Shown: positions 8,842-63,171 of the stretch, one piece after another
How the letters are laid out: the number at the start of each line of letters is the position of its first letter
Numbering within the stretch: the stretch's first letter is position 1
From: Chromatiales bacterium
Lineage (GTDB): Bacteria > Pseudomonadota > Gammaproteobacteria > Chromatiales > Chromatiaceae
NCBI GenBank assembly: GCA_028280505.1
Contig: JANQLO010000016.1
Coordinates: 1 to 64,000 of the forward strand
Reading direction: 5' to 3'
Length of the DNA stretch: 64,000 nucleotides
Position numbers and translations under genes: made by a program
The notes under the pieces: generated by a model
What the model was told of the DNA's origin: nothing
The model's database searches: none
The model's input: only the letters and a program-made list of their open reading frames with translations

Positions 8842-8844
8842 GTC

Positions 8845-9153: not shown

Positions 9154-9231
9154 GCCCGGTATCGTGAATCTTGACGCCAAAATCGGCTTGACGAAAAATC
9201 ACACAAACTTTCTGCTTTTTTGGAGTCGACA

Positions 9232-9486: not shown

Positions 9487-9506
9487 GGCCTGCCAGCACA
9501 CGGGCA

Positions 9507-9546
9507 ACTGCCGTGCCGCCCATCGCGTGACCCGCGGCACGGCAGT
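9507..9546. terminator. Hairpin between convergent genes
   Basis: A perfect 13-bp inverted repeat pairs 9507-9519 (actgccgtgccgc) with 9534-9546 across a 14-nt loop. It sits between the converging zinc-ribbon and AmmeMemoRadiSam radical SAM genes. No T-run follows on either side, so termination is likely but not certain. Confidence 0.6.
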
Positions 9547-9547
9547 C

Positions 9548-10636: not shown

Positions 10637-11041
10637 GTGCAACCCCCCAATACGCTGTCTCCTGATGACATTATCGTTCACCGTGTTCCCGGCAACACAC
10701 CGTAATCTCGCGGCGGCCGTACCATGCTTGCGCGCCCGGCACGGCCATCCATCGGCAGTGTTGTCTAAGAACGACGAATAGTACAACCGTGCATGCGGGC
10801 TTGATTTATCCACGAGGATGGTTCATTTACATACTTACCCACGTAACGCGCAACGGCGGAATTCCTTATCGATGAGGCCCTTTGCATAAGGCATGACCCA
10901 TCGATCTGGCCAAAGCATAAGTACGTTTTATCCGATTCGGTTTTGTGAAAGATCTGACGCCGCGGCTGGACGTACTTCCTGGAAACACCCAACCCTTTGT
11001 GCGATATCCGGGGTTTGTTCAATTGACGTTAGGTAATCGTG
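10637..11041. other. Divergent promoter region of the AmmeMemoRadiSam genes
   Basis: This 405-bp gap lies between the minus-strand radical SAM gene and the plus-strand AmrB gene, so it must contain both promoters. I could not assign boxes with confidence and see no other gene or repeat. Confidence 0.4.
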
Positions 11042-11824: not shown

Positions 11825-12404
11825 GCCCGTCGCAACGCTGGATGTCGAACGGCGCAATACGCTGATCGAGGTCGCGCGGCACTCGATAACACACGGCCTT
11901 GACTACGCGCGCCCGCTAACGATCGACCCCACGACCTACCATCCCGATCTGCAACAGCGACGGGCCAGCTTCGTCACCCTGCACTTGGGCAGACAGCTTC
12001 GTGGCTGTATCGGGCACCTGGAGGCCCTGCGACCGCTGGTCGCCGATGTGGCCGACAATGCCTATGCGGCAGCCTTTCGCGACCCACGTTTTTCACCGCT
12101 GGGCAAAGCCGAGTGGCCACAGGTCAGTTTGTCGCTGTCAATACTGAGCAAACCGCAGCCGATGCACTTCAGCGACGAAGCCGATCTGATCCGACAGCTG
12201 CGACCGGGAGAAGATGGACTGATCTTAGAAGATGGCATGAAACGCGGCACCTTCCTGCCATCGGTCTGGGAAACGCTGAACAACCCGGCGGCCTTCCTGC
12301 GGGAACTTAAACGCAAGGCGGGTCTTGACGCCGAACACTGGACCGAGACACTGAAGGTCTCGCGTTATCACACCGAAAGCTTCGATGAGTCGACCGCAGG
12401 TTGA
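11802..12404 (+). CDS. amrA: AmmeMemoRadiSam system protein A (AMMECR1 family)
   Basis: This 200-aa protein contains the AMMECR1 signature LRGCIGHLEA near residue 65, the stretch NAYAAAFRDPRF and a C-terminal region with FLPSVWE. It overlaps the preceding amrB reading frame by 23 bp; the start may be ATG 11802 or 11811. In the family it is found beside or fused to MEMO-type proteins and the radical SAM enzyme, as here. Its 3' end is 12 bp from the converging diguanylate cyclase gene. Confidence 0.9.
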   Translation: MAPMPSSKPVATLDVERRNTLIEVARHSITHGLDYARPLTIDPTTYHPDLQQRRASFVTLHLGRQLRGCIGHLEALRPLVADVADNAYAAAFRDPRFSPLGKAEWPQVSLSLSILSKPQPMHFSDEADLIRQLRPGEDGLILEDGMKRGTFLPSVWETLNNPAAFLRELKRKAGLDAEHWTETLKVSRYHTESFDESTAG

Positions 12405-12416
12405 CGCTGCATCCAC

Positions 12417-13460
12417 TCAGCCTCGACGACTTTCCCAGGTGACTTGATTGCGCCCGTTCTGCTTCGATTGGTATAGCGCCTGGTCCGCACGAGCTATCAA
12501 AACCTGGGTTGCCTCGGCATCTCTCAACCAAGCGCCGCCGACCGAGGCCGAAACCGACAGGCTCTGGCCATCGGCAATATCCTCCGGCAACCGGATGATG
12601 CTCTGATCGATATGAGCACGGATGTTTTCGGCAACCGCCAGGCAACCGGCGCGCGGGGTATCCAGCAACAACACCGCGAACTCCTCGCCGCCATAGCGCG
12701 CAACCAGGTCACGACCACGCACACTACCCTTTATTTCCGCGGCCACGGCCTGCAACACGCAATCGCCCGCCAAATGGCCGTAAGTATCATTTACCCGCTT
12801 GAATCGGTCGATGTCGACCAGCAATAGGCAGGGCGCATGCGCTTGATCGCTACCGGACTCTGCCAAACCGTCCAGCGTTTCTTGAAAAGCCAGACGATTG
12901 AGCAAACCGGTTAACACATCCGAACGTGCCTCGACCTGCGACACCGCCAACTTGTCGCGAACCTCCTGCATCTCATCGGCCAACCGGGTCATTTTCTGTT
13001 TCAACTCGGCGCCATGATCGAGCGCGGCATTGGTCGCGGAGACCGCACGATCGATCAGACCGTTGAGATCATCTGCCGTCGTTTCACTTTCGAGACACTT
13101 CGCGATGTCGTGCAGTTCGGTGGAAAAGCCGGCATAGTGGCCATCGGCCCGATCGATGTGCGACATCAGTGCGCCGACTAGCTGGCCAAGCGCTGCCTTG
13201 GCGGTCTGGACCTTTTCGGTCCGTTCCGTCAAATAGCGTTCATACAATTCGCGTAACTGGTGCTCGGTAATGCCTTCCGGGCGGCTCAACAATGCGTCCA
13301 TCTCGCGCCGGAGTTCGTGATTCGACTCACTGAGATACTCGTACCAAACGGCATAATTCAAAGGCGTAATCGGAATCTTCATTTCCGACATGCGTGGAAT
13401 CGCCGAGCGTACGATATCCACCGTGTGGTCATAGTTGACGCTCGCTTCGTTTTCCGTCAT
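12417..13460 (-). CDS. GGDEF diguanylate cyclase (cytosolic)
   Basis: This 347-aa enzyme makes cyclic di-GMP from two GTP. The catalytic half has GGEEF at about residues 257-261 and an RxxD inhibitory site (RGRD, 248-251) exactly five residues before it, so product inhibition is expected. The N-terminal half is helical and lacks membrane segments, with a coiled-coil-like stretch (about 145-175) leading into the GGDEF domain. ATG at 13460 follows GAGGGAG at good spacing; the GTG two codons upstream is less likely. Confidence 0.9.
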   Translation of the reverse strand: MTENEASVNYDHTVDIVRSAIPRMSEMKIPITPLNYAVWYEYLSESNHELRREMDALLSRPEGITEHQLRELYERYLTERTEKVQTAKAALGQLVGALMSHIDRADGHYAGFSTELHDIAKCLESETTADDLNGLIDRAVSATNAALDHGAELKQKMTRLADEMQEVRDKLAVSQVEARSDVLTGLLNRLAFQETLDGLAESGSDQAHAPCLLLVDIDRFKRVNDTYGHLAGDCVLQAVAAEIKGSVRGRDLVARYGGEEFAVLLLDTPRAGCLAVAENIRAHIDQSIIRLPEDIADGQSLSVSASVGGAWLRDAEATQVLIARADQALYQSKQNGRNQVTWESRRG

Positions 13461-13781
13461 AGGCACTCTCCCTCACGACTGTCGTTTATTACTTGTTACT
13501 TATATCGATCGCACTCGTGCCCGTGCGATCGTTGGTGGATGGCTCGATGCAACATCATGCGTCACGCACGTGCCCATCCGATGGCGATATGTTTTGATTT
13601 CTTCCTTGAGCATTTGGACGACCGAGTCAAAACCATCCGCGGCGGATGATATCAAGAGCGTTACTGTCCAGGTCGAATACCGCCTGAATATAACGTTAAT
13701 CGATGTTAAGAAGATCGTTAATCACTCATAGTCATTCGGCTTGAAATGCCAAACGAGCAAAAACTGACACGGCGACAAGGA
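13461..13781. other. Intergenic region, nothing recognised
   Basis: About 320 bp upstream of the diguanylate cyclase. It is AT-richer than its surroundings toward 13690-13740 and probably contains that gene's promoter, but no box, repeat or gene fragment could be assigned. Confidence 0.35.
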
Positions 13782-48849: not shown

Positions 48850-50037
48850 TTACCTGGGCCTCACCACACAAAAAGCGCCGGCGTTTTGCGGCCCAAGCTC
48901 ATCAAATCGGCAAACAACTTTTTGCGATAAATCCGCGTCGGCGCTTCCACCATGAACTACGTTGTCGCCTGCAATATCGTATTGGGCTTTGCCGTCAGTG
49001 GTTAGCTTAATGTTGCCGATAGATAGTCCGTTGTTGCTCGAGCAACCCGTTCGTACGCAACCGATTTCTCCATCCTCTGTTTGGTACAAATACTCCAATG
49101 GGGGGGCTTTCACACATTCAGGCCGCTGACTCCCCAGTAAAACCGTGTCCACAACGTCTTCTCTAGGATGCATGTATCGTTTGTTTTTCAAACCCACGCT
49201 GATAATTCCTACCTGAGGACGCATGTAATTGTAATAGGCTGCAGAGGTACTGCTTTCACTACCGTGATGGGCGATATGTAAGACATCAACCCCGTGTTCG
49301 ACCGTTATCAAACCTTCACGAATCAGCGCGAGCGCGACACGTGTTTGAATGTCTCTCTGTCGAGTTTCGTGACGGGTACAATCTTCCGGCCCGGAACCCA
49401 GGTCCCCGTCGAGCAGGAAATGAAAGTGGCCGTAGCGAATCAGTAAGACGACGGAGCGGTCGTTTTCATTCGGTACAGCAATCGGCACCCGTTCACCGAT
49501 GATTCGTCCATTGGCCGCAACCACAATCGCTTCGGCCCCTTCTCCGAGATTGATCGATAGCCCGACTGGGATTGAACGCACGGCGCCCGCCAACGTCAGC
49601 TCGGCCGGTTTCAACCAGTTCCTGATCATTGATCTAGAAGGGCGTTTAGTACTTCCAGAATCATAATTTGCAACTGTTATGTCATAGCCCGCTTCGATAA
49701 CTGCGCGATATCCCATGTAATGATCTTTATCGCGATGACTGACAATCGAGTAGTGGATGTTGTCAGAAGGTCCGAGACCTACCTTGTCACGCAGATACGG
49801 GACAATATCTCGATCACCGTTCACCGCACCAAAATCGTAGAGTATTCGTGTCCCATTTGGACCAACGATGAGATTGGCGCCACCCTGTCCGACGTTGATG
49901 TAATGCACCTCAAGCCTTCCAACATCAGCGAAAGCCAGGTTCGACATCCCGAACACAGTAAACGCCACTATTAGTTGACTCAAAAACTCCGGCCAAGGAA
50001 TTGACATTAAGCGAGGAAGCATCATTAGCAACGCCAC
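48850..50037 (-). CDS. Exported ComEC-like metallo-beta-lactamase-fold hydrolase
   Basis: This 395-aa protein has an N-terminal signal/anchor (FLSQLIVAFTVFGMSNLAFA), then VHYINVGQGGANLIV, the metal-binding SHRDKDHYMGY (HxDxDH type), a LLDGDLGS region and IAHHGSESS, which is the competence-ComEC type of MBL fold. This fold commonly cleaves nucleic acids or phosphodiesters. Its GTG start overlaps the stop of the upstream membrane gene by one base (TAGTG); ATG 50025, 50022 or 50007 are alternatives. It is the last gene of the patatin operon. Confidence 0.8.
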   Translation of the reverse strand: MALLMMLPRLMSIPWPEFLSQLIVAFTVFGMSNLAFADVGRLEVHYINVGQGGANLIVGPNGTRILYDFGAVNGDRDIVPYLRDKVGLGPSDNIHYSIVSHRDKDHYMGYRAVIEAGYDITVANYDSGSTKRPSRSMIRNWLKPAELTLAGAVRSIPVGLSINLGEGAEAIVVAANGRIIGERVPIAVPNENDRSVVLLIRYGHFHFLLDGDLGSGPEDCTRHETRQRDIQTRVALALIREGLITVEHGVDVLHIAHHGSESSTSAAYYNYMRPQVGIISVGLKNKRYMHPREDVVDTVLLGSQRPECVKAPPLEYLYQTEDGEIGCVRTGCSSNNGLSIGNIKLTTDGKAQYDIAGDNVVHGGSADADLSQKVVCRFDELGPQNAGAFCVVRPR

Positions 50038-51008
50038 TATGAGAACTTTTGACCATACCTTTGAAGCAAATCCGCAATCACTTCTTTACGTTTAGGATCC
50101 TCAACACTTAACGGATCGGCCAGTTCTTCATTTAGAAAACTAAATACTGGGTTTACTTCGCTTTTTCCCCTTCGCAGTGAGCCCAAGTCAAACTTCTCGA
50201 CAAGCACATGAACGAGCTTTTCGAGCGCGCCGTAGACGAGTTTGACACTCAGACCAACCAGAAACGCTACCGCTTTGTAATCTAGTGGCAGATGATCTTC
50301 CGAAAATAGCGCCGGATCGAACAGATACAATACGACTGCGGCAAGAACGGCGCCGAGAACGACTCGCAAATACAATCCGTGCAACCGCGTGCTATCGAAT
50401 GCGCGATGCTGCGCATAATCGTAGAGCGCTTTAAGCAGATACACGCAGGAACCCAATCCGCCCCATATAAAGGGCATCAGATGCAATAACAAATGCTCAT
50501 GGGCGTCCGAGAGCCAAAGATGCCAACCCTCTTCAGGTGTCGGTTGTTCGGAAAGCCAACTGCCAAGCATCTCATTCGCAATAGCGACGGAAAGCAAAAG
50601 TACTGTTAATAGAATCAAATCCCAAATATGTTGGTTGGCTTTTCTGGTTTCTAGAAGCGTACGACCATTGATCTCGAAACCGTCAGTATTTGATGCTTTG
50701 ATGAGATGTGAATAAAGTTCGAGCACTTCGGCTTCCAATTTTGACGTCTCTTCCCCATCCCGATCCTTATTGTTGGCTTCGTATTTGTTCATTGCTTGAG
50801 AAAGCAAGGTGAGTGTCGACCTTTCTTGCGAGTTAAAAGCCGGATCGATCCCCCTCTCGCTCGCGTAGCGAATTAGCGCATTGACCTCCGTGCTCGAAAC
50901 GCGTTGAGTGATATCGATGTACTCATGATTCCTTCTTCCCTGGAACATCTGCAATATTCTGCGGAACACCCCCATGTGCGAGTTCTCCATTTGGTTGTAT
51001 TGATTCAC
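50037..51008 (-). CDS. Membrane protein of the patatin operon
   Basis: This 323-aa protein has a charged N-terminal cytosolic part (about 1-125, helical) and about four membrane helices (WDLILLTVLLLSVAIANEM, LMPFIWGGLGSCVYLLKAL, YLRVVLGAVLAAVVLYLF, VAFLVGLSVKLVYGALEKLV), then a cytosolic tail. I recognise no family. It is translationally coupled to the MBL gene and lies 26 bp after the patatin gene. The low GC content marks it as acquired. Confidence 0.7.
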   Translation of the reverse strand: MNQYNQMENSHMGVFRRILQMFQGRRNHEYIDITQRVSSTEVNALIRYASERGIDPAFNSQERSTLTLLSQAMNKYEANNKDRDGEETSKLEAEVLELYSHLIKASNTDGFEINGRTLLETRKANQHIWDLILLTVLLLSVAIANEMLGSWLSEQPTPEEGWHLWLSDAHEHLLLHLMPFIWGGLGSCVYLLKALYDYAQHRAFDSTRLHGLYLRVVLGAVLAAVVLYLFDPALFSEDHLPLDYKAVAFLVGLSVKLVYGALEKLVHVLVEKFDLGSLRRGKSEVNPVFSFLNEELADPLSVEDPKRKEVIADLLQRYGQKFS

Positions 51009-51034
51009 TTGTTAAATCATCTTGTTTAGAGAAG

Positions 51035-52150
51035 CTAAAACGGAAAGTCCGGAATAGGCCAGCGACCGGGGCCGGGATCATCGTCAAGCACATGTTTTCG
51101 CATGGCGGCGTCCGTCAGCGCGTATCCCCAGTTGATTAAGTGGCCCTGCTCCTCGGGAGAAAACGCGTTTAACCGGGTTCGAACAGTCTGCATCGAACGC
51201 GTAAGATCACTGTCCCTGACCATCGTGCTCTCTAATGCATAATGATCGATTTTTGTAGTGATGCCCCAGTAAGCGCCTCTGCATTCGCCGGACAAATAGT
51301 CGGCTATTAACTGTCGTTTACGTAGGGATCGTGCCTGCTCGGTCAAGATATCGACCGTACGCATTGTCTGTTTTCCCCAAAGACTCGACGGATCATCTTC
51401 CGGAAAACTGGGCGCGCCCGCATCTGCAACCAGTACCGTCTGATATCGGCGCCATACGTTTTCCAATCCCATGTTGTCGTATACACCTCCGTCACTGAGA
51501 ACCAGGCGTTTTCGCATGTTCTCGCGTGAGTACAAGTAGGCACCTGGCGATGCTTTCCATTTCTCGGGATCCAGTTTGAAAATCGCAGGAGACAGAACAG
51601 GCGGGAAAGCGCTAGATGCTCCAACAGCGCGTGCAATCGAGATTGTCGGATCAGGAAACTGTCCAAGTTTATAGTCAGCCAAATAGGGCTTGGAGAAACG
51701 GACGCTCGAGGTCGTCTGGAGGCTCGTCGCATAAATGACGAACCGCGGCCCCTCTTCGTCATTGGGGAGATCTTGCAGGGTGGCGCCGTGATACAAATGT
51801 TTGTCGTAACGACCTGCGACGATGTCGTTGATGTTTTTACCGAAGTGCAGAATTCCAGCGATGCCCGAAGAGACATCGATGTTTCGACCACAGAAGTCGC
51901 GGATTGGCGCGGCAATCTCATCCTCAAAGTTTGACGCCACGCCATTTGCATCGAATTTAAGGCATTTCCACTTTGTGCCCAAAAGGCCCGCCGTGATGCT
52001 GCCACCAGATACACTGGTTACGCGCTTAAGCTTAGGAAACCAGCCCAATTCGTTTAAACGCCAAAGACTGCCTAGCATATAAAGCGCTGCCCGAAATCCT
52101 CCTCCGGATAACGCTAAACCTACCCCTGGCTCTCGGTCCTTTCCGTGCAC
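51035..52150 (-). CDS. Patatin-like phospholipase
   Basis: This 371-aa hydrolase has the oxyanion loop SGGGFRAA (15-22), the nucleophile elbow SVSGGS (Ser48), and the catalytic Asp in SDGGVYDNMG. Patatins cleave acyl chains from membrane lipids, and several act as membrane-destroying effectors in bacterial defence systems. The start is GTG 52150 after GGACGG. It opens a three-gene operon with a membrane protein and an exported MBL hydrolase. No nucleotide cyclase or other sensor is encoded nearby, so the trigger, if any, is unknown. Confidence 0.88.
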   Translation of the reverse strand: MHGKDREPGVGLALSGGGFRAALYMLGSLWRLNELGWFPKLKRVTSVSGGSITAGLLGTKWKCLKFDANGVASNFEDEIAAPIRDFCGRNIDVSSGIAGILHFGKNINDIVAGRYDKHLYHGATLQDLPNDEEGPRFVIYATSLQTTSSVRFSKPYLADYKLGQFPDPTISIARAVGASSAFPPVLSPAIFKLDPEKWKASPGAYLYSRENMRKRLVLSDGGVYDNMGLENVWRRYQTVLVADAGAPSFPEDDPSSLWGKQTMRTVDILTEQARSLRKRQLIADYLSGECRGAYWGITTKIDHYALESTMVRDSDLTRSMQTVRTRLNAFSPEEQGHLINWGYALTDAAMRKHVLDDDPGPGRWPIPDFPF

Positions 52151-52774: not shown

Positions 52775-53083
52775 ATGAGTACGGAACCGGAGATCAAGCG
52801 TTGGACAGCGAAACGTAAAGCTGCGCTGATCAGAGAAATCTACAAGGGCCAAACGACGGTACCGGAGGCGGCCAGGCAGCATGACCTGACACCTTCAGAG
52901 ATCGAGGGTTGGATAGAGGAGGCAGAAGCGGGCATTGAGAACGCCCTGCAGGCGAATCCGCGTGATGTAGCCGAGCAATACGAGCAGAAGCTCAAGGAGC
53001 TCCACGAGGCCTATGGCGAGGCAATGTTGGAGAACAAAGCGCTAAAAAAGCTGCACCGCCATCTCGGCCTGGACGAGGACTGA
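52775..53083 (+). CDS. IS3-family transposase OrfA
   Basis: This 102-aa protein has a helix-turn-helix (VPEAARQHDLTPSEIEGWIEE) and a C-terminal coiled coil (EQYEQKLKELHEAYGEAMLEN). It binds IS ends. The run AAAAAAG at 53044-53050 near its 3' end is in the right frame to shift ribosomes by -1 into OrfB, as in other IS3 elements. Confidence 0.85.
   Translation: MSTEPEIKRWTAKRKAALIREIYKGQTTVPEAARQHDLTPSEIEGWIEEAEAGIENALQANPRDVAEQYEQKLKELHEAYGEAMLENKALKKLHRHLGLDED
53044..53050 (+). promoter_or_regulatory. Slippery heptamer for -1 frameshifting
   Basis: The heptamer A AAA AAG lies in the OrfA frame, 33 bp before the OrfA stop. The OrfB frame is open back through it, so the OrfAB fusion transposase can be made. 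Confidence 0.6.
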
Positions 53084-53103
53084 TAAGGTCAATTCAAGCG
53101 GAG

Positions 53104-53805
53104 ATGGCGGAAGCCGGTACGCCGGTCAGCATCGAGAAACTGTGCCGCTGGTTTGGCGTATCGCGTCGGACGTATTACTACAAGCCGGTGAGGTCTCCAC
53201 CCAAAGTGAATGACGTACTGGCACGGCGGATCAAGGGATTGATCGAAGAGATGCCGACAGCGGGCTACCGAACGGTTGCTTGGCTGCTGGGGCTGAACAA
53301 AAACACGGTGCAGCGCATATTCCAGCTTAAGGGCTGGCAAGTCCGGCGAAGACCTGCGGGGAAGCGGCCCAGGGCGCCGAGCATGCCATCGGTAGCGGAA
53401 CGGCCGGATGAGCGATGGTCGACGGATATGGCTCGGGTCTGGTGTGGCGAGCGGGATCGCTGGGCAGCGCTGATCAATCGATTTGGGGCATTAGCGCGCC
53501 TTGCACAACCGCTGAGCCTGCGGAGCGACAATGGTTTGGTTTTCTGTTCTATCCGCTTCAGCGGCACGGTGCGGCGTTACGGAATCACACAGGAGTTTAT
53601 CCAGCCACATACGCCGCAGCAGAACGGTATGGTTGAGCGGCTGATACGGACGATCAAGGAGCAATGTATCTGGCTTCATCGATTCAACTCAATCGACGAA
53701 GCGAATCAAGTATTGGGGAGATGGATCGATTGGTACAACCAGCATCGTCCCCATCAGGCACTCGGGATGAAGACGCCTCGAGAGGTTTATCAACTAGCAG
53801 CCTAG
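53104..53805 (+). pseudogene. IS3-family transposase OrfB with internal deletion
   Basis: 233 aa from the first ATG. The DDE retroviral-type integrase core is recognisable: D108 (STDMARVWCG), D142 (RSDNGLVF) and E178 (GMVERL), with the standard 35 residues between the last two. Only 33 residues separate D108 and D142, where IS3 OrfB proteins usually have about 60 to 75. The missing part is the beta-strand/helix segment after WAAL, so about 100-120 bp were deleted in frame. The enzyme is probably inactive. Confidence 0.75.
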
Positions 53806-54237: not shown

Positions 54238-55461
54238 TCACTTATTACGCAGTTGTTCGACCTTATTTAGGGTCACCATGTCCAGCAACATATCGAATCG
54301 GGCGTTGGCCGCTAAGAACCGCATCAGGTTTGGCGGTTCGTAGGGTTGGGACTCACTCCTGCCGTTACCGGTATCGACCAGTGCCGAATCAGCAGCCAGG
54401 CGTTCGAAGGTCGAAGTAGCCACGGTGAGGTTGGACGACTCCGTGAAATGCGCAAACTCGCGTTCACCGTGCCGGCCGTTGAAGAACGAGAGTGGCTGGC
54501 GCAGTCGGTACATCAGGTTGCGCCTGTTGCTCAATGGACCCAACGCATTCGAGCGGAAAAAGCCCAGGTATTTCCCGTCCAGTTCCAGGCCCTCAGCGGA
54601 TGCAGCATCCACGATCCAGTTCAACGCCCCGTTGGCAAGGTCGTCACGGATGCGTCCTCCTCCGACGTTGCCATGCCCCCCAGGGAACAGCGCCTGAATC
54701 ATATCGTTCGCTGTATTGCCCCCGGTCCAGACCTCGGCTCGGAAATCCTTGCGCAGTTCATCGAGCGCGATGGCATGACGGGCAACGTCGACACACTCCG
54801 GCAACAGGGGGCTCACCAGGAAGTACTTTTCACTGGACGAGGTCCGCTCGTCGGACGCCAACCGCGGCCCCAGTGACATGACCGTATCCCACAGCCCGAG
54901 GACCCGGATACGCAATTTGCGGAAAGGCTTCAGCGCTTGCTGATTCGACCCCTGGGTTTCAATCCTGTTTTTCAGTTGGATGAAGGCCTCAGGGTCGCCC
55001 TGCGATTCCAGGTAGTGCCGATAGAACTCGGGAACATAGTAGATATCGCCTTTAACCGGGACCCCGTGCATCCAGTCGATGAACTTGCACAAGGCCTGCG
55101 CCTGTGCGGCGCCGCGACTGTAGCCGAACAGGTACACGCTGTCGCCGTCCTCGAAGTTGTGGGCGAGAAAACGATAGGCATCGTCCACGTTACCCTCGAA
55201 ACCCGCACCCCAGGCACCGCCCAGCTTGCTGTCGAACCAACGCAGCACACCGTTAGTGTAGCCCGGATACTCCGCCATCGCGCCCACGCCAGTATCGTAG
55301 TAGACGACCTGTGCCATTCCATCCGAAGCGCGGGACGTCACCCCACGTGCCACCTTGAGCACATTGGTCGGCCGAAAGACCTTGGAGCCATCCGAGCGCT
55401 CCTGTTCCTGTGATGGCGTATTCCAGGTGCCATCCAGACAGATAACGAGCCGCTTGTTCAT
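54238..55461 (-). CDS. DUF2235 (Tle1-like) alpha/beta hydrolase
   Basis: This 407-aa protein starts RLVICLDGTWN, the N-terminal signature of DUF2235/Tle1-like hydrolases, and has the nucleophile elbow FGYSRGA (Ser115) after DGDSVYL. Relatives include phospholipase effectors of type VI secretion. There is no signal peptide. It is the last gene of a four-gene operon with caspase-like, unknown and MBL genes, 33 bp after the MBL stop. Membrane damage upon activation is a reasonable inference, not shown. Confidence 0.85.
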   Translation of the reverse strand: MNKRLVICLDGTWNTPSQEQERSDGSKVFRPTNVLKVARGVTSRASDGMAQVVYYDTGVGAMAEYPGYTNGVLRWFDSKLGGAWGAGFEGNVDDAYRFLAHNFEDGDSVYLFGYSRGAAQAQALCKFIDWMHGVPVKGDIYYVPEFYRHYLESQGDPEAFIQLKNRIETQGSNQQALKPFRKLRIRVLGLWDTVMSLGPRLASDERTSSSEKYFLVSPLLPECVDVARHAIALDELRKDFRAEVWTGGNTANDMIQALFPGGHGNVGGGRIRDDLANGALNWIVDAASAEGLELDGKYLGFFRSNALGPLSNRRNLMYRLRQPLSFFNGRHGEREFAHFTESSNLTVATSTFERLAADSALVDTGNGRSESQPYEPPNLMRFLAANARFDMLLDMVTLNKVEQLRNK

Positions 55462-55494
55462 TATTGATCTGATCCGTTTCAGCGTGGGTGGATG

Positions 55495-56556
55495 TCACAC
55501 CGTCCAGGTGATGAAACCGTTGTGTTCAGGGTAGTGGGTCTTGTACCCAAAACGCCGCTTCCAGTGGCGGTTGTCCCAAACCTCGGTCTCGGGTGAACGA
55601 TAGTTGAAGTGCAGGTTCACATTGTCGCCGCCATACTTGACGATGCGCGCGATAGCGACACCCGTGGGATGATCGAAATAGGAACCGTTGGTCGATACCA
55701 GGTAATGATCGCAATCGATGCGTTGCAACAGTTCCTTAGAAACGTTGTGGCTGCTTCCATGGTGCGGCAGCTTGAACGCATCGAGCTTCAGGCGTTCGGC
55801 ACTATCCCCCATATAGTCGTCCAGCCCGGCAATCAGCCTGTCGACGTGGGCATCACCCGCCAGCAGAACACACCTCTCATCCACCTCCAACAGGAAAGCA
55901 ATGCTGGAACCATTTGCCGGTGAATGATCGTCTTCAAACGGCTCTTCAGCGGCATTGTCGATATTGAAACCGAGGCGCTCCCAGCCTTCCGGTGGATCAG
56001 GGGTCTCGGTTCCCGGCGACATCCCAGCCTTGCGGCATTCACGTTTCCACTTGGATATCAGGTCTTCGAGTTTTTCACGATCGGGTGACAGCAATACGAT
56101 GCGCGCGCCACCGTTCAACACATGAATATTGTCTTCACCGACTTCCACCGCCTTGCCGTCGAAACGACGGTTCCAGCGCCAATTGCCGGCCAAGATCCGG
56201 TCGGCCCACTCTTCTCCCTGGCGCGCCCCCAGATGCTCATATTCCGGTGCTGTCTCGTAATTCGCAGGCACATACACGCGCTTGCCTTCGAGATGATCGA
56301 AGCAGTTGTACCAGATCTCGCGGCACTGCATCTGGAAGCCCGCGCCCTCAGTAAGCTTCAGCAGGCCCTCGATGTGATCGCGGTCGACATGTGAGGTAAC
56401 CAGCAACTCGAGCGGCTGTTCGAGTGCATCGAGCTTGTCCTTCAGCGCCGGTGCGGTTGCCGCTCTGCCACCATCGATGAGCATGGAATGCTCACCCCAG
56501 GTGACCCACAGGGCATCGCCCTCGCGCGCCGGCAACATTTCGATGGAGAGGCTCAT
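55495..56556 (-). CDS. ComEC-type MBL-fold hydrolase of the caspase operon
   Basis: This 353-aa cytosolic protein has LLVTSHVDRDHIEGL (metal ligands H56, D58, D60, H61), LLAGDAHVD, KLPHHGSSHN and YLVSTNGSYFDHPT, the arrangement of ComEC-like MBL domains. The fold often acts on nucleic acids or nucleotides. Its ATG shares one base with the stop of the upstream unknown gene (TGATG), so translation is coupled. A zinc-dependent nuclease or phosphodiesterase role is inferred. Confidence 0.85.
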   Translation of the reverse strand: MSLSIEMLPAREGDALWVTWGEHSMLIDGGRAATAPALKDKLDALEQPLELLVTSHVDRDHIEGLLKLTEGAGFQMQCREIWYNCFDHLEGKRVYVPANYETAPEYEHLGARQGEEWADRILAGNWRWNRRFDGKAVEVGEDNIHVLNGGARIVLLSPDREKLEDLISKWKRECRKAGMSPGTETPDPPEGWERLGFNIDNAAEEPFEDDHSPANGSSIAFLLEVDERCVLLAGDAHVDRLIAGLDDYMGDSAERLKLDAFKLPHHGSSHNVSKELLQRIDCDHYLVSTNGSYFDHPTGVAIARIVKYGGDNVNLHFNYRSPETEVWDNRHWKRRFGYKTHYPEHNGFITWTV

Positions 56557-57917
56557 CAGCCCACTGAGACACGCTCGGGTGTTCTTTCCACGATCCGCTC
56601 GCGGCGCAAGTCGATAGTGGTGAAAGTCTGCTGCATATCGGTTCGCCAGGCCGTTGTCTGTACCTGTTTCAAAAGTTCTGCCAGTTCTCCACTGTCATCT
56701 TCACCGGCATGCAGCACCAGGAGATCACGCAGCCAACTCAGCCCCAGGGAGAAATACGGTACACCCCGGGCGCCTGCTTTCTTCAATGCCTCACGCGCCT
56801 TATCCAGATCGTCGTCGCTCTCCGCCAAATGGGTTTTCAACCACGCATACTGGATAGCGCCATCCGGCAACCACTCCATCCAGTTCATCAGGTTGTAGAT
56901 CCAGTCCTGCCAGGGCCCCGACTCTGGATTGTCCGACAGCATGACGTATGCCCCGGCTGCTGCGCCCAAGGGGTTGGACATCTTTTCAAACAGCATCATC
57001 CGGGCAGATTCAAACAAATGGGCAGAAGCGGCGATGTCGCCGCTGGTAAGGTAGGCGAGTGCCGAGCCCACCAGCCGGTCTCTGATCGCCACGGAAATTC
57101 CGACTTCTCCGGTACCGCCTTTCTCGACCACCAGTTCACAAGGAGCTTCGCCGCTGTGGTCCACTTGAGGCCATGGCACGGGCAGACTGACCATGCGCTC
57201 GCCGGAATTCGACTTCACGACGACGAACCGGCGCGAGCCCAGGTCACCGTATTCCGATTCAAACCTGTAGAGCTCGTATCGTTCGTCCTGTATCTCCGGC
57301 TCGATCGGATGCCCGGAAATATCCATTGCCTGTGAACCAGTGTTGCTGGAAATCACACGCTGCAAGGTTGCCCAGGTCTTGCCACCGGTCCCGAGTGGGG
57401 ATGCAGAGGGTTCAAGGGTAAACACCTCCACGCTGTCGACGCGCTCCAACAGCCCACTATCTTCGGCAAAGGGCTCCACCCATGATTGCTGCGTCGCACG
57501 TTTACCGCCGAACTGGCGGGCGGCACTGCTCATCATCTTCCTGTCCTGCAGTTGGCTCCGCCGCTCATCGGTGCGGTAATCGACGCTGCCCTGGAAGGCG
57601 TGCCACATCATCCAGTCGTGCGGCGATTGCGCTTCGGAGCGGATCTCGACCGTCTCGTCCTCTGCACCCAATTCGACGTCCTGGGTAAAGACTTCACCGT
57701 TCGGCAGTCGTGCCCGAACAAGATAATGCCCGTCTTCAAGATGAATGTGTTCGGAGCGGTCCCAATCGCCCGACAGGATCAGGTTTTCCCGCACCATTTC
57801 CAGGTGCCCTTTACCGGTGCTGTTCTCTGGATCATTGACCTTCATCACGTCTAGGACGATGGCATTGTTGCCAACTTCGTCGAGCATCGCGGTATACGAA
57901 AGCTTGAGTGTGCTCAT
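56556..57917 (-). CDS. Uncharacterised protein of the caspase operon
   Basis: The product is 453 aa from ATG 57917, which lies 5 bp after the caspase stop (a TTG at 57926 overlaps that stop). I do not recognise it. Residues 1-80 look like a beta-sandwich (GHYLVRARLPNGEVF and around), 80-270 mix strands and loops with GERMVSLPVPWP, and 280-430 are helical, TPR-like (ASAHLFESARMMLF, AWLKTHLAESDDDLDKAREALKKAGARG). No catalytic motif or membrane helix is visible. Its place between protease and MBL suggests a sensor, scaffold or protease substrate. Confidence 0.7.
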   Translation of the reverse strand: MSTLKLSYTAMLDEVGNNAIVLDVMKVNDPENSTGKGHLEMVRENLILSGDWDRSEHIHLEDGHYLVRARLPNGEVFTQDVELGAEDETVEIRSEAQSPHDWMMWHAFQGSVDYRTDERRSQLQDRKMMSSAARQFGGKRATQQSWVEPFAEDSGLLERVDSVEVFTLEPSASPLGTGGKTWATLQRVISSNTGSQAMDISGHPIEPEIQDERYELYRFESEYGDLGSRRFVVVKSNSGERMVSLPVPWPQVDHSGEAPCELVVEKGGTGEVGISVAIRDRLVGSALAYLTSGDIAASAHLFESARMMLFEKMSNPLGAAAGAYVMLSDNPESGPWQDWIYNLMNWMEWLPDGAIQYAWLKTHLAESDDDLDKAREALKKAGARGVPYFSLGLSWLRDLLVLHAGEDDSGELAELLKQVQTTAWRTDMQQTFTTIDLRRERIVERTPERVSVG

Positions 57918-57922
57918 GTCGA

Positions 57923-59056
57923 TCAAACCGCCTTCAAGGGAATCTTGATATAGGGTGGCACGATGGTTCGTCGTGCAGCGACCTGCGCATACTCCGGCGA
58001 CTCCGCAAAAAACTTGTAGGTGTCGGATTTAAGCAACAGTTCCCAAGTACTGTCTTCAGGTGGACGCCGCTCTATCTCCTGTCCCTCGAGGGCGTACCAC
58101 ATCTCCGCACCCTGCTGGAAATCGTCGGGTTCACACCTGACGTACACCGGCACTTCCGGCTCCTGTTCCAGGTAATGTAGGGCAAACGGCGCCATGTTGT
58201 CGCCCGGCGGCACCTGGGCACGAGGTTGCCCGGTGCGATTCAGCCCGGTCGAAATCGACAACTGCAGTTCGTTGGTGAACACCCGCCAGTCACCATCCCT
58301 GGATGACGCACCGCCTCCCTTGAGGCCATCGATCAGGGCCTTGGTGAACAGGCTCGGCTGATCCACCCGGGCGAACGCAGCCTCGCCAGACAGGGTTGCA
58401 TAGAACACCGGCGCCAGCCTGGAACGGCCCTGCTGGGTGCGCACCTGCGGCCGGATGATTGGCCTGCCGGCGGTTCCCCAGCTTTCTATCAGCGAATCGC
58501 TGGACAGGCGGCAAGCATCGACAAAGTAGGCCTGCTGTTTCGCCGCACACCGGTCCATGCCCATGTGGAAAAGTTTGAAGTTGATTGCCTGGTCGAAAGG
58601 GTCGTTTCTGTTGGAACCGTAGTCCTCGCACAGCAATGCAACATCCGGCCCTTGCGAGATGCCATGACCACAGAAGAAGAACAGCAGCAGATTGTCCTCG
58701 TTCTGATCGCCTGCATCCTTCCAGTCGGCCACCACATCCTCGACGTTGGAAAAGGTGGCGGTGTCGACCTCGGCCGGTGCTGGAACCGTTAATCGGTCGT
58801 TGTCGATCTGCCTGTCATCAGCGGAAAGCAGCAGGCGTAGGCTGGCCAACGGCTTGTCGGGATTCCTATAGCTTTTCAACAACCATTCGGTAATGCTGCG
58901 TGCGGAAATGGGCGGCGAGGTCAGCTGCCCCATGCCGTCACAATCGCTCACCGGCATCGGATCCGTACCACCCAGCAGGTACGGGTAATTACCCACCCCA
59001 ATCACTAATGCGTGAGTAACCGGACCCGCCTGCGGCTTATCGTAGATCAGCGTCAT
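57923..59056 (-). CDS. Caspase-like (C14 family) protease
   Basis: This 377-aa protein has the caspase/metacaspase p20 plan: HALVIGVGNYPYL at the N-terminus, the catalytic His in FFFCGHG (H131) and the catalytic Cys in YFVDACR (C182). No prodomain or EAD is present, and the C-terminal region (about 270-377) is unrelated to p20. Such proteases cut after specific residues and act in bacterial cell-suicide defence. It is the first gene of the four-gene operon. A partner that activates it is not obvious. Confidence 0.88.
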   Translation of the reverse strand: MTLIYDKPQAGPVTHALVIGVGNYPYLLGGTDPMPVSDCDGMGQLTSPPISARSITEWLLKSYRNPDKPLASLRLLLSADDRQIDNDRLTVPAPAEVDTATFSNVEDVVADWKDAGDQNEDNLLLFFFCGHGISQGPDVALLCEDYGSNRNDPFDQAINFKLFHMGMDRCAAKQQAYFVDACRLSSDSLIESWGTAGRPIIRPQVRTQQGRSRLAPVFYATLSGEAAFARVDQPSLFTKALIDGLKGGGASSRDGDWRVFTNELQLSISTGLNRTGQPRAQVPPGDNMAPFALHYLEQEPEVPVYVRCEPDDFQQGAEMWYALEGQEIERRPPEDSTWELLLKSDTYKFFAESPEYAQVAARRTIVPPYIKIPLKAV

Positions 59057-59363: not shown

Positions 59364-60263
59364 GTGAATATTCCTGACGATGCCGAACAGTTCATTGAGT
59401 CGGTATTGAATACTACAAAGCAATTAATTGAACTTGGCTTCTGGGATGTCGAGCGTTCCCGTCTGGACAGCTGGTGGAAACAGTTTTGTGGCGTTGAAGA
59501 GGAATTTTTTGCAGCATGCCTACTTGATAGAGTGATTTTCCGCTCACGGCCTCAATTCGAAGCGGCGCTCCGATCCCTGTTCCGAAGTAATCTGAATAGG
59601 TCAATATTTAAGGACAAACACGACGGTTATCTCGTCGACACCCTGTCAAGCCGCTCGAACGAACCGAAAATCAGACTGGTACCGGTGATCTGTGAGTCCG
59701 ATCCACCGACAAAATCTGGCCCTCTGGTAATTAGGCGTCTTCAAAGAATCTTGCGCTTGAATCCCAAATGGATGTGTTGGCCTTGGCAGGCTTCGGATGC
59801 GGTAGAAAAAGAGGGGGTTGATACTGTCATCTTTGTAGATGACTTCTTGGGCTCGGGTGGGCAGTTTAAGACCTTTTTCGATCAGTGGCAGTTTGGCGAA
59901 CCGGGCATGAGCAAAGTCAGGTTCTTCTACGCACCGGTAGTTGCGCATGAAAAGGGAATTGACCACCTATCGACTGAGTTACCAAGACTCAGAATCGCTT
60001 ACATCGAAAGTCTGGGCTCTCGCCAACAGTTTTTCAGTGACGAAACTTGGGACGACATGTCACATGGCTCGGTAACCGCCCTTGATGCGAAAAACTGGTA
60101 CCTGGAATTCGCTAGAAAACGCAAAATTGCCGGGAGAAAAATCGACCCTCTCGGCTATGAGAAACTTGAATTGACCTACGGGTTCAGTCACTCCACGCCG
60201 AATAATTCGCTGCCAATCCTCTGGTCCACCAGCGCGAATTGGAATCCGTTACTGGAGCGATAG
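59364..60263 (+). CDS. Phosphoribosyltransferase-like protein (PRTase-CE type)
   Basis: This 299-aa protein has a PRPP-binding-loop-like motif VIFVDDFLGSGGQF (about 155-168) preceded by a strand (VRLVPVICE type), as in type I phosphoribosyltransferases. The rest does not match purine or pyrimidine salvage enzymes. It resembles the PRTase-like proteins that occur in prokaryotic conflict systems together with AAA+ ATPases. GTG start after AAAGGA. The ATPase gene begins 2 bp past its stop. A catalytic role on nucleotides is possible but unproven. Confidence 0.7.
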   Translation: MNIPDDAEQFIESVLNTTKQLIELGFWDVERSRLDSWWKQFCGVEEEFFAACLLDRVIFRSRPQFEAALRSLFRSNLNRSIFKDKHDGYLVDTLSSRSNEPKIRLVPVICESDPPTKSGPLVIRRLQRILRLNPKWMCWPWQASDAVEKEGVDTVIFVDDFLGSGGQFKTFFDQWQFGEPGMSKVRFFYAPVVAHEKGIDHLSTELPRLRIAYIESLGSRQQFFSDETWDDMSHGSVTALDAKNWYLEFARKRKIAGRKIDPLGYEKLELTYGFSHSTPNNSLPILWSTSANWNPLLER

Positions 60264-60265
60264 AA

Positions 60266-62242
60266 ATGAATCACGAACTTCCAGAAGTATTTTCAAAGAA
60301 CCGCAGCGAAGAAAGCTATGAAGACAATTGGTCCGAGTTTCTCGTTCCTCCGTTTCTGGAAAATTTGCAGATTAAGTCGCAGTCTAAGGCGCTAGTAATT
60401 GTCGGTGGCCGTGGCTGCGGCAAAACCACCTTACTCAGGTACTTCTCGCATGCCACCCAGTTTTCGCCAAAACGACGTGAACTGCCTGAAGAGGCCTTAA
60501 GCCATATCGGCTTGTATTGGCGTGCCGATACCAACTTCCTCAACGCCTTTGTTGGCAGTGGCCAAGACGCTAGAACATGGCGATCTGCTTTTGAACACGT
60601 ACTAGCCTGCGATATCGGATTAGAACTGCTCCAAAGCCTACTTAACTTAAACTGTACTCAAGAACGAGTAGAAAAGTACGGAGGATTGGAAGCACTAGAT
60701 CTGAGCGACGTACAAGATTTTGATGAATCCTTAGGCGCTACTCTTCCTGATTTGAAGCGTAGCTTGGAATCTGCAGGCAGGAAGCTATCTACTTGGATAA
60801 ATAACTTAGACCGCGTTGAAAAGCCCCGTTTTCTTCCTCTCAATCAATTCTTGGACACAATAGTAACCGCGGTTTGTGCGCAGCTTCCGTACCTTGCTGA
60901 TACCAGCTTTGCTGTGTTCTTTGACGAATACGAGAACTTGAGAAAAGAGCAGCAGCAATACATCAATGGGCTGCTCAAGCACGGAAAGCCTCCTTTGCTC
61001 TTCAATATCGCCATGAAACGCAATGGCTTCCATACGTGGGAAACGCTTGGCCCCGAGTCCATACAACTGACTTCTGACTATAGAATCATCGACCTTGAAG
61101 ATGAAACGAGCAACAACGACTTTGAACTGTTCGCGGCAGAACTGCTTTTCTTCCGTCTAGCGGAACATAATCCGTCCCTACTATCGGAACTGCCGATAGT
61201 TCCGAATCATCTGCGTGACGTTACTAAGATTGATTCAAGATATAAGAACCTTGAATACAGGAATCGGGTGGTTGGTGCTGCAAAGAGCCTTCTACCTCGT
61301 GTATCCCCAAAAGCTGCAGCAGCCGAAATCTTCAGTGACAACAAATTAAAGCAGAAACTCACTCTACGAATAGAAAATGCCCTTCGGCTGCGTGAGTCAG
61401 ATATTCCTGTCGAAAGCTTTCTAGACGAAAAGCATTCAGATGTTTCTGTCGTAATATCGGCACTTTTGTATCGCCCCCGGGAATCTCCCCCCAAACTACT
61501 GGCGGATTTTAGTGACATACAGAAGGGCCAAACGAATCGCCTAACTGATGAAGTTCTGCTATCCACCAATCTATTTGGCTGTGTTAACGCCATTTATCTC
61601 GACGCCAATAGAGATTCCATACTGTTCTCTGGGTTCAAATCGCTGACATTGATCGCCAGGGAGAATGTTCGCCATCTACTTGAGTTGATACATCGAGTTT
61701 TCAAAGCCTACAGCAGCAAATACGAGTATGAAGGCTTACCGAAAGTCCCTCCCGAATTACAAGCAAAAGCAGTGAGACAGGCGAGCGAACAAATCTTGAG
61801 TGATGTTAGTGGCGGCTGCGGAAAATACGGCCCTCAATTACAGAACCTCGCTAGAAGCCTTGGTTCTATATTCCGAGAACTCCACAGAAGCCAAAAACAA
61901 AGTGAACCAGAAACTAATCATTTCACGCTTTCAGGTGGAGAGCTTGATAGCAACATGGCCACCTATTTGGCAGAAGCTGAAAAATGGTCAGTCCTTTACA
62001 GGGCGAAGGAAACAAAAATGAAGTCGACTGGCGCAATGGATGCAGACCTCATTTTGAATCCTGTATTCTCGCCGTTTTTTCAAATCTCGTATCGGAAAAG
62101 ACGCAGCACGGCATTTACAGCAAGTGATCTACTTTGCATGCTCGAAGGAGACCAGGCTACTAGAGACAGCTTGGTCCGAAAGCTGACGAAAAGAAGCCCA
62201 AGCGATACCCTTCATCTCGACTTATTTGATGAGTCGAACTAA
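60266..62242 (+). CDS. ORC/CDC6-like AAA+ ATPase
   Basis: The product is 658 aa from ATG 60266, 2 bp after the previous stop with GGAG upstream. Walker A is GGRGCGKTT (47-55) and Walker B is FFDEYEN (220 onward), followed by sensor-like NIAMKRNGFHTW. The N-terminal AAA+ module resembles the ORC/CDC6-like ATPases found in prokaryotic defence loci. The long C-terminal part (about 320-658) is helical with no motif I know. It likely uses ATP to sense or act on DNA or a partner. Its stop shares a base with the next start (TAATG). Confidence 0.75.
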   Translation: MNHELPEVFSKNRSEESYEDNWSEFLVPPFLENLQIKSQSKALVIVGGRGCGKTTLLRYFSHATQFSPKRRELPEEALSHIGLYWRADTNFLNAFVGSGQDARTWRSAFEHVLACDIGLELLQSLLNLNCTQERVEKYGGLEALDLSDVQDFDESLGATLPDLKRSLESAGRKLSTWINNLDRVEKPRFLPLNQFLDTIVTAVCAQLPYLADTSFAVFFDEYENLRKEQQQYINGLLKHGKPPLLFNIAMKRNGFHTWETLGPESIQLTSDYRIIDLEDETSNNDFELFAAELLFFRLAEHNPSLLSELPIVPNHLRDVTKIDSRYKNLEYRNRVVGAAKSLLPRVSPKAAAAEIFSDNKLKQKLTLRIENALRLRESDIPVESFLDEKHSDVSVVISALLYRPRESPPKLLADFSDIQKGQTNRLTDEVLLSTNLFGCVNAIYLDANRDSILFSGFKSLTLIARENVRHLLELIHRVFKAYSSKYEYEGLPKVPPELQAKAVRQASEQILSDVSGGCGKYGPQLQNLARSLGSIFRELHRSQKQSEPETNHFTLSGGELDSNMATYLAEAEKWSVLYRAKETKMKSTGAMDADLILNPVFSPFFQISYRKRRSTAFTASDLLCMLEGDQATRDSLVRKLTKRSPSDTLHLDLFDESN

Positions 62243-63171
62243 TGCCAAAGCCGCGCTTCAAATTCTATTCGAACAAATATGAAACTCCACCAGCTTGTTT
62301 AGGCGGATGTGATACTGCGTTTGTAGGAAAGGCTGTTGATGACCGAGGGAAAGCATCCATTGCCGCTCTAACAGCATCTTCTAGCACCATTTGCAGTGTC
62401 GAATTTGAACCAGAAGATCAAAACCTACGTGTTGATGGTATTAACACTACACCTGAACGCATTGCTGAACAGTTCGAAGGCAAGACTCGAATTGTTCTTG
62501 ATGCAACCACTTTAGGTTTGGGCGAAGTGTTGCACATCTTGATGTCAATTAGACTAGCGGATAGTGGTTCGGTTGAATTCCTCTACGCTGAGCCTAAGTC
62601 CTACACGCGAAACATCAATTCTGAAGAAAGCAATTCCAGCCAGAAGAAGTACGACCTAACTAGAAATCGCGAATTCATTGCGATTAACGGCTTTAATTCG
62701 GTGTACAAAGGTAATTCTGAAGCTGCGCATGTCATATTTTTGGGTTTTGAAGCATCACGCGTCGTCAATGCGCTGACCCAGCGCGACATTAACCCTGAGA
62801 ATTATCAAATACTACCTGTGATAGGCGTGCCGGCTTTCCAAGCAGGATGGGAACTCAATAGTATCAAGCCACACCTGTCTTTTTTCGAAGATCAAAAAAT
62901 CAGCCAATCAATGATCAGTTATTGCCCCGCTGATTCGGTTAAGGAGGCCTACTTCACCCTTTGGGAATTGTACGAACGACTTCGCAACCGGCGGAGATTG
63001 TTTTACGTTTCTCCGCTCGGCACAAAGCCGCATACTATCGCCACGACGTTGTTTTTACTTGAGACTAAAGGAGACATCTGGACTACATCGCTGTACTACG
63101 ATCACCCTCAACGGGTAGACGAACGCTCAACGGGACAATCCACTTGGCATCATGTAAAGGTCGAGTTCTGA
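62242..63171 (+). CDS. Third protein of the PRTase/ATPase operon
   Basis: This 309-aa protein is translationally coupled to the ATPase (TAATG). I do not recognise it. It looks alpha/beta, with Rossmann-like strands (TRIVLDATTLGLGEVLHIL, VEFLYAEP) and two Cys close together near the start (ACLGGC). No catalytic motif or membrane segment is obvious. It ends 11 bp from the converging methyltransferase gene. A regulatory or effector role in the triad is likely. Confidence 0.65.
   Translation: MPKPRFKFYSNKYETPPACLGGCDTAFVGKAVDDRGKASIAALTASSSTICSVEFEPEDQNLRVDGINTTPERIAEQFEGKTRIVLDATTLGLGEVLHILMSIRLADSGSVEFLYAEPKSYTRNINSEESNSSQKKYDLTRNREFIAINGFNSVYKGNSEAAHVIFLGFEASRVVNALTQRDINPENYQILPVIGVPAFQAGWELNSIKPHLSFFEDQKISQSMISYCPADSVKEAYFTLWELYERLRNRRRLFYVSPLGTKPHTIATTLFLLETKGDIWTTSLYYDHPQRVDERSTGQSTWHHVKVEF

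What the first reader, a model, noticed from the sequence alone, without database searches (positions are those of the whole stretch)
54238..59056. Four-gene caspase / unknown / MBL / Tle1-like operon, a candidate undescribed conflict system
Seen: four minus-strand genes with spacing or overlap typical of one translationally coupled unit (stop-ATG gap of 5 bp, then TGATG, then 33 bp). Catalytic residues of the caspase (H131, C182), MBL (HxDxDH) and DUF2235 hydrolase (GYSRG) are intact. Known: caspase-like proteases act in bacterial suicide-type defence, DUF2235/Tle1 proteins are phospholipase effectors, and MBL folds can be nucleases. Inference: the protease may activate the lipase or the MBL, with the 453-aa unknown protein as sensor or substrate. 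I know of no named system with this exact set.
Basis: partly seen in the sequence, partly recalled or inferred. Interest (0 to 1): 0.85.

Follow-up and report, generated by a model that had tools for sequence, protein, structure and literature searches.

The report
Caspase–nuclease defence operon with added lipase
This looks like a bacterial suicide-type anti-virus gene set of a recently published kind (a caspase-like protease that switches on a DNA-cutting enzyme), here joined by a lipid-cutting enzyme that recurs beside such protease–nuclease pairs and may be a second weapon.

Summary
The four minus-strand genes are real, intact and spaced like an operon. The first three match caspase-nuclease (canu) loci published in November 2025 (PMC12799240): caspase, a beta-sandwich/TPR-like protein, and an MBL pro-nuclease. 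So the core is not undescribed. Two points go beyond what I found in print. (1) In 45 canu nucleases both gating segments carry an E-x-[F/L/M]-G-like site, and the residue before the glycine is the same at both sites in 39 of 45 (shuffles: mean 18, maximum 30 in 20,000), as expected if one protease cuts both. (2) A lipase gene (DUF2235 or patatin) lies beside 12 of 39 canu loci and 8 of 41 other loci of this nuclease, always within 3.4 kb. The window's DUF2235 falls in a 100/100 clade of 11, ten beside this nuclease (seven of the ten from one group of close relatives). DUF2235 plus canu recurs in four other loci of separate lineages. The window lipase lacks the nuclease-type cut site, so activation of the lipase by cutting is not supported. 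Best reading: a dual-effector canu variant. Function is inferred; nothing was tested at the bench.

The parts
57923..59056 (-). Caspase-family protease (CanA-like), 377 aa; catalytic H131 (58664-58666) and C182 (58511-58513)
   Evidence: ORF; PF00656 8.9e-10; PADLOC caspase 3.5e-12; H and C each conserved in 42 of 43 canu caspases
56556..57917 (-). CanB-like protein, 453 aa from ATG: N-terminal beta-sandwich (about 1-98), middle beta part, C-terminal TPR-like helical part (about 280-430)
55495..56556 (-). MBL-fold pro-nuclease (CanC-like), 353 aa, HxDxDH at 56-61
56227..56241 (-). Predicted gating/cut site 1 in the MBL, Y-E-H-L-G (residues 106-110)
55969..55983 (-). Predicted gating/cut site 2 in the MBL, W-E-R-L-G (residues 192-196)
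54238..55461 (-). DUF2235/Tle1-like alpha/beta-hydrolase, 407 aa; S115 (55117-55119), D192 (54886-54888), H263 (54673-54675); candidate second effector
   Evidence: PF09994 1.5e-61; tree; solved Tle1 relatives; residues
51035..52150 (-). Patatin-like phospholipase of a subfamily that sits beside protease-MBL pairs elsewhere; membership in this operon doubtful (2 kb and an IS3-type element away, GC 0.50 against 0.57-0.59)
   Evidence: PF01734 1.2e-14

Best explanation
A canu-type abortive-infection operon with two effectors. Shown here by sequence: a caspase, a beta-sandwich/TPR-like partner and an MBL nuclease with two E-x-[FLM]-G sites in segments that an ungated ComEC-like MBL lacks, plus a DUF2235 lipase with its catalytic residues intact. 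Inferred from the published canu system: the CanA-CanB pair responds to infection, the caspase cuts the MBL at the glycine of both loops, and the freed DNase destroys DNA. Inferred here: the DUF2235 protein is a phospholipase that strikes the cell's own membrane on the same trigger, so the cell is hit at DNA and membrane; it is probably turned on by contact with the activated complex or by membrane recruitment, not by cutting at the nuclease-type site.
For: Core: same gene order and parts as published KaeCanABC; caspase-CanB-MBL in 38 of 39 CanB loci. Cut sites, 45 canu MBLs: P4 is E at both sites in 42 and E/D in 3; P1 is G at both in 40; P2 is identical between sites in 39, against a shuffled mean of 18.0 and maximum of 30 in 20,000; simulation on the tree reached 39 matches in 0 of 300 runs at each of the two rates that give about 9.8 and 11.8 changes (observed 9 and 12), and in 2 of 300 at 7.2 changes. 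The span between HxDxDH and the next conserved block is 160 aa here and 92 aa in the ComEC-like MBL at 48850-50037. Lipase: 20 of 80 nuclease loci have a DUF2235 or patatin gene in the fetched flanks, all 20 within 3.4 kb of the nuclease, 18 on its strand (crude probability 3e-6). In L033 and L034 patatin, caspase, CanB and MBL overlap by 4-8 bases end to end, with start codons picked by script. DUF2235 + canu: window, L024 (Cellvibrionales MAG), L031 (Alteromonas, same order as the window), L084 (Acidobacteria MAG; 1.1 kb gap to the caspase), L145 (Bradyrhizobium plasmid). DUF2235 + MBL with other proteases: S8 in Miltoncostaea, CHAT/TPR-S in L054. Tree: window DUF2235 in a 100/100 clade of 11, ten MBL-linked.
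Against: 27 of 39 canu loci show no DUF2235 or patatin in the fetched flanks (some are cut by contig ends), so a lipase is not required. The window DUF2235 has no [ED]-x-[FLM]-G; over lipases of canu loci the motif count is 5 against 2.5 expected in 4 DUF2235 (three of the five in L084) and 8 against 6.7 in 10 patatin hits, six of these at the patatin D-N-[LM]-G motif: a link between caspase and lipase was looked for and not found in the window. Seven of the ten linked members of the DUF2235 clade come from closely related genomes. The sign test on independent pairs of the tree cannot reach 0.05 for want of pairs. No sigma-70-like promoter was found. My lipase profiles were grown from the window's own lipases and may miss distant ones.
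Confidence: 0.62

Rival explanations
1. The canu core works alone; the lipase is a passenger, for example a separate defence or toxin gene that often lands in the same islands.
For: 27 of 39 canu loci lack it; its position varies (upstream, downstream, divergent in L133); 28 of 29 non-window DUF2235 loci returned by the class-wide search have no MBL in the roughly 1.5 kb held on each side.
Against: All 20 lipases lie next to the cassette, none farther out in the flanks; 4-base overlaps through four genes in L033; the linked DUF2235s cluster on the tree (4 changes against a shuffled mean of 13.0, though near-copies help this); 7 of 8 non-window relatives of the window patatin in the order sit beside this nuclease.
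Confidence: 0.22
2. The lipase is a zymogen that the caspase cuts and activates, like the nuclease.
For: Passages of PMC13236601 say phospholipases or endonucleases replace gasdermin in other CARD-NLR systems, where the effector is activated by proteolysis. DUF2235 of L024 and L031 both have E-K-L-G at about the same aligned place. The window's DUF2235 clade has longer loops between conserved blocks.
Against: No [ED]-x-[FLM]-G in the window DUF2235; the E-K-L-G of L024 and L031 does not match the P2 residues of their own nucleases (F/M and F/F); one of the extra loops is also seen by eye in L087, a DUF2235 on the opposite strand to the MBL.
Confidence: 0.12
3. The DUF2235 gene is a type VI secretion effector of the Tle1 kind, aimed at other cells, and unrelated to canu.
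For: Pfam names the family after Tle1; solved relatives are named Tle1 or type VI secretion proteins.
Against: No secretion gene is among the family hits of the ten window proteins scanned; nearest relatives sit beside protease-MBL genes. I did not scan all of the window's genes or the genome for a T6SS.
Confidence: 0.04

Closest known systems
Canu (caspase-nuclease), KaeCanABC; Tuck et al. 2025, PMC12799240
   Same: Gene order caspase, CanB, MBL nuclease; conserved glycine in two gating segments; Ig-like and TPR folds described for canu loci; defence-island setting.
   Different: A DUF2235 lipase gene follows. In the paper's main text 'lipase' and 'DUF' begin no word and 'phospholipase' counts 0; [quoted passage not shown]
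AVAST type 1 (Avs1a-Avs1b), Hachiman HamMAB, Lamassu and DRT nuclease-protease pairs (as described in PMC12799240)
   Same: Homologous MBL pro-nuclease paired with a protease.
   Different: Trypsin-like protease fused to a defence enzyme; there the cuts follow isoleucine (shown for HamM), not glycine; here a separate caspase.
Caspase with alpha/beta-hydrolase pairing in VMAP ternary systems (Kaur et al. 2020, PMC7159879; passages seen)
   Same: A caspase domain with a neighbouring alpha/beta-hydrolase gene.
   Different: Those systems centre on MoxR-vWA-VMAP genes; 'MBL' and 'metallo-beta-lactamase' are absent from that text.
Tle1-like (DUF2235) phospholipases
   Same: Catalytic domain and conserved catalytic blocks.
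   Different: Short stand-alone form beside a protease and a nuclease; no secretion context seen among the neighbours scanned.

Membership tests
canu (CanABC) | Caspase gene upstream of an MBL nuclease gene in one locus | tested here: met
canu (CanABC) | Catalytic residues of caspase and MBL intact | tested here: met
canu (CanABC) | Two insertions with conserved glycine in the nuclease | tested here: met
   By sequence only: both sites present in the window; G at both in 40 of 45; 160 against 92 residues in one ComEC-like MBL
canu (CanABC) | The insertions block the active site | not tested
canu (CanABC) | CanB between them, forming a complex with CanA | tested here: inconclusive
   A middle protein is present and recurs; KaeCanB itself was not at hand for comparison; no complex was modelled
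canu (CanABC) | Ig-like domain at the C-terminus of the caspase | not tested
   The caspase was not modelled
canu (CanABC) | Phage defence, and nuclease activated by CanAB | not testable with these tools
   Needs bench work
AVAST type 1 | Avs1a above its NCBIfam cut-off, with trypsin-like and STAND partners | tested here: not met
   230 bits against a cut-off of 420; caspase instead of trypsin and no STAND hit among the four operon proteins
Tle1-like DUF2235 family | PF09994 domain with catalytic Ser, Asp and His blocks | tested here: met
T6SS effector | Secretion genes or adaptor beside the gene | tested here: inconclusive
   None among the ten neighbouring proteins scanned; the rest of the genome was not searched for a T6SS

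The most novel reading that the evidence does not exclude
Protease-gated MBL nucleases form a wider family of dual-effector suicide systems in which a lipase (DUF2235, apparently recruited more than once, or patatin) is a regular second effector across caspase, CHAT-type and S8 proteases, so that one trigger destroys both DNA and membrane; and each caspase's recognition of its nuclease is written in two matched E-x-[F/L/M]-G sites.
Probability: 0.4. Interest if true: 0.75.

Novelty: new variant of a known kind. Interest (0 to 1): 0.58.

Why it matters
If right, canu is one member of a broader group that couples a gated nuclease to a lipase, a bacterial parallel to cell death that attacks genome and membrane together. 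The matched cut sites give a testable code for which protease cuts which nuclease, and the lipase link gives a way to find further systems with other proteases.

Tried and rejected
Read as AVAST type 1: rejected, partner genes differ and the Avs1a score is far below its cut-off. Lipase cut by the caspase at the nuclease-type site: looked for, none in the window lipase. Patatin at 51035-52150 as part of this operon: doubtful; its subfamily is linked to this nuclease elsewhere, but here it is 2 kb away beyond an IS3-type element, in DNA of lower GC, and its neighbours differ (the 323-aa protein has one relative in the other 194 genomes searched and none on plasmids). Viral contigs: 50 stretches matched a pattern, none encodes a relative of the MBL. 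Solved structures by sequence: none for the window caspase at E up to 0.1; one weak match (8ah9, E 0.013) for the CanB profile. An extra loop in the DUF2235 clade was considered as a gating insertion and not claimed. A caspase column (235, Ser/Thr) tracks P2 across loci, but the window looks like an exception and no tree correction was made. A phylum-wide search with the CanB profile found it in 4 of 398 genomes, so the system is rare in that sample.

Papers: the listings showed no paper that, by title or start of abstract, joins DUF2235 or patatin to canu. Most listed papers were not opened (PMC11090510 and PMC10910872, which hold several of the terms, among them), and the library holds only open-licence PubMed Central text. 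Of PMC12799240 I read parts 1, 2, 3 and 6 of 6 and passages; of PMC7159879, PMC8195603, PMC3482391 and PMC13236601 passages only.

Limits: the genome scan returned the best 80 of 237 relatives, ranked by likeness to the window. Of 51 plasmid records with an MBL match I opened 14, chosen by hand, plus the record of the top DUF2235 hit, also one of the 51. Six of the 14 show the caspase-CanB-MBL set by profile or annotation (L133, L144, L145, L148, L149, L150): one with DUF2235 (L145), one with a divergent patatin (L133), one with a divergent gene annotated alpha/beta hydrolase (L144), three with none. Rows dropped: L144 and the second MBL of L065 from the cut-site count; four identical DUF2235 rows from the tree. 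In that tree one row (L135_4136) counts as linked only by distance. The CHAT domain was scanned in L054 only; the like-placed ORFs in L134-L140 were not scanned.
Full report
What is there. Four intact minus-strand genes at 54238-59056: caspase (377 aa), a 453-aa protein, an MBL-fold protein (353 aa) and a DUF2235/Tle1-like hydrolase (407 aa), with 5 bp, TGATG and 33 bp between them. Catalytic residues are intact. GC of the four genes is 0.573-0.59, like window bases 1-48000 (0.574), while the stretches on both sides are poorer in GC (0.457-0.511).

The core matches canu. A 2025 paper (PMC12799240) describes caspase-nuclease loci: CanA caspase, CanB, and CanC, an MBL pro-nuclease predicted to be held shut by two insertions with conserved glycines; KaeCanABC protects against phage T4, and a CanA-CanB complex turns CanC into a potent nuclease. 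The window's first three genes follow this plan. Their MBL is closest to PADLOC LmuA, Avs1a and RTasMBL models, that is, to nucleases of the systems that paper unites.

How common is the core? A scan of the species-genome collection with an alignment of seven such MBLs gave 237 relatives, of which the best 80 were returned. With profiles grown from the window proteins, 39 of 80 have a CanB homologue next to the MBL; 38 of those have the caspase too, and the 39th starts at a contig end. In L093 and L098 the caspase and CanB matches lie in one ORF. In less selected samples it is rare: the CanB protein was found in 10 of 195 genomes of the order and the CanB profile in 4 of 398 of the phylum, own genome included.

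The cut sites. The window MBL has Y-E-H-L-G and W-E-R-L-G within a span of 160 residues between two conserved blocks; the same span is 92 residues in the ComEC-like MBL at 48850-50037. In 45 canu MBLs (39 genome loci, 5 plasmids, the window) P4 is E/E in 42 and E/D in 3; P1 is G/G in 40; P2 is identical at the two sites in 39 (F/F 22, L/L 11, M/M 6) against a shuffled mean of 18.0 and maximum of 30 in 20,000. Related sequences inflate such counts. On a tree built without these columns only five well-supported independent pairs exist for F and five for L, and three for M; the second site never went the other way for F or L and on average in 0.1 pairs for M, but the sign test cannot reach 0.05 with so few. 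Simulated independent sites matched in 39 or more in 0 of 300 runs at each of the rates giving 9.8 and 11.8 changes (observed 9 and 12) and in 2 of 300 at 7.2; at rates far too slow for the data such matching is common. The [ED]-x-[FLM]-G motif is enriched in 44 MBL-profile hits of these loci (89 against 29.3 expected) and scarce in CanB (11 against 25.2 in 40). The paper reported conserved glycines; the E-x-[FLM]-G form and the matching of the two sites come from this work, as far as the text I read shows (its sequence logos were not visible to me).

The lipase. In the 80 loci, 20 have a DUF2235 or patatin gene in the fetched flanks, and all 20 lie within 3.4 kb of the MBL, 18 on its strand: canu 12 of 39 (9 patatin, one of them on the other strand; 3 DUF2235), other 8 of 41 (5 DUF2235, one on the other strand; 3 patatin). 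About 53% of flank DNA lies within 4.7 kb of the MBL, the reach that holds such a gene, so all 20 by chance has a crude probability of 3e-6; related loci (L054, L064, L069) make the true figure weaker. In L033 and L034 patatin, caspase, CanB and MBL overlap by 4-8 bases throughout, with start codons picked by script. DUF2235 with the full canu core: window, L024, L031 (same order as the window), L084 (1.1 kb gap to the caspase) and a Bradyrhizobium plasmid (L145; 8-bp gap from DUF2235 to caspase, IS5 genes upstream, IetS and IetA on the other strand downstream). DUF2235 with the MBL but another protease: S8 on a Miltoncostaea plasmid; CHAT with TPR-S in L054, with a like-placed, unscanned ORF in the related loci L134-L140; a CHAT match below its cut-off in L046.

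Is the lipase link special? PF09994 is present in 50 of 195 genomes of the order. A class-wide search found relatives of the window DUF2235 in 30 of 369 genomes, own included; of the 29 non-window loci returned only one, also the best scoring, had the MBL in the 1.5 kb or less held on each side. On a tree of 47 DUF2235 proteins the window sits in a 100/100 clade of 11, ten linked to the MBL, seven of these from one group of related genomes; the exception (L104) showed no such gene in the 12.9 kb around it by its ORF list. The MBL-linked label needs at least 4 changes (3 forced by well-supported branches) against a shuffled mean of 13.0; a second linked group (L046, L084, L145) suggests more than one recruitment, but the count cannot tell gain from loss. 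For the window's patatin, 9 of 195 genomes of the order have a match at E up to 1e-20, own included; of the 8 others, 3 are patatin-caspase-CanB-MBL, 4 are patatin-large ORF-MBL and 1 has no MBL in the 12 kb fetched. The large ORFs are unidentified: that of L161 has no PADLOC match, and similar-sized ORFs in L100 and L046 show only matches to C25 and CHAT proteases below the cut-offs.

How it may work. By analogy with KaeCanABC, CanA-CanB responds to infection, the caspase cuts both loops of the MBL and DNA is destroyed. The DUF2235 enzyme would then add a membrane blow. I looked for the nuclease-type cut site in the lipases: the window's has none, and the counts in others are 5 against 2.5 expected (4 DUF2235) and 8 against 6.7 (10 patatin hits). 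L024 and L031 share an E-K-L-G, but its P2 does not match their own nucleases. So I do not propose that the caspase activates the lipase in that way. Recruitment by the activated complex, or membrane contact, is a guess. Parallels: passages of PMC13236601 state that phospholipases or endonucleases replace gasdermin in other CARD-NLR systems, and PMC7159879 notes a constant alpha/beta-hydrolase neighbour of VMAP caspases.

Verdict. The lipase partnership and the paired cut sites are the new points. Function of the window operon is inferred throughout.

Noticed in passing
window 59364-63171 (+): Three-gene set PRTase-CE (2.3e-50), ORC-CDC6-like ATPase (4.9e-99) and CARF6 protein (PADLOC 4e-94), divergent from the caspase and of lower GC: probably a second conflict system.
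   Followed up: partly
window 48850-52150 (-): Patatin, a 323-aa protein with apparent membrane helices (by eye) found in only one other of 195 genomes, and a ComEC-like MBL with a signal-peptide-like start (by eye) and a short span between conserved blocks.
   Followed up: partly
window 52775-53805 (+): IS3-type transposase pair between the DUF2235 and patatin genes; the second ORF (233 aa) looks short, perhaps a remnant (family and usual length recalled, not searched).
   Followed up: no
canu caspases, column of window residue S235: Ser where the nuclease P2 is F (22 of 22), mostly Thr where it is L or M (13 of 15): candidate specificity residue; only loci with equal P2 at both sites counted, not tree-corrected, and the window (Ser with L) seems an exception.
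   Followed up: no
L065 (Dawidia soli) 7400-13566: Caspase-CanB-MBL followed by patatin and a second MBL.
   Followed up: no
L049 and L088: A second, 620-aa protein with a caspase-profile match directly upstream of the canu caspase.
   Followed up: no
L168 (Enterobacter plasmid) and L169 (Shewanella plasmid): A relative of the MBL heads a set annotated in Shewanella as an ABC-three component system with an AAA ATPase; a similar four-ORF layout, all annotated hypothetical, in Enterobacter.
   Followed up: no
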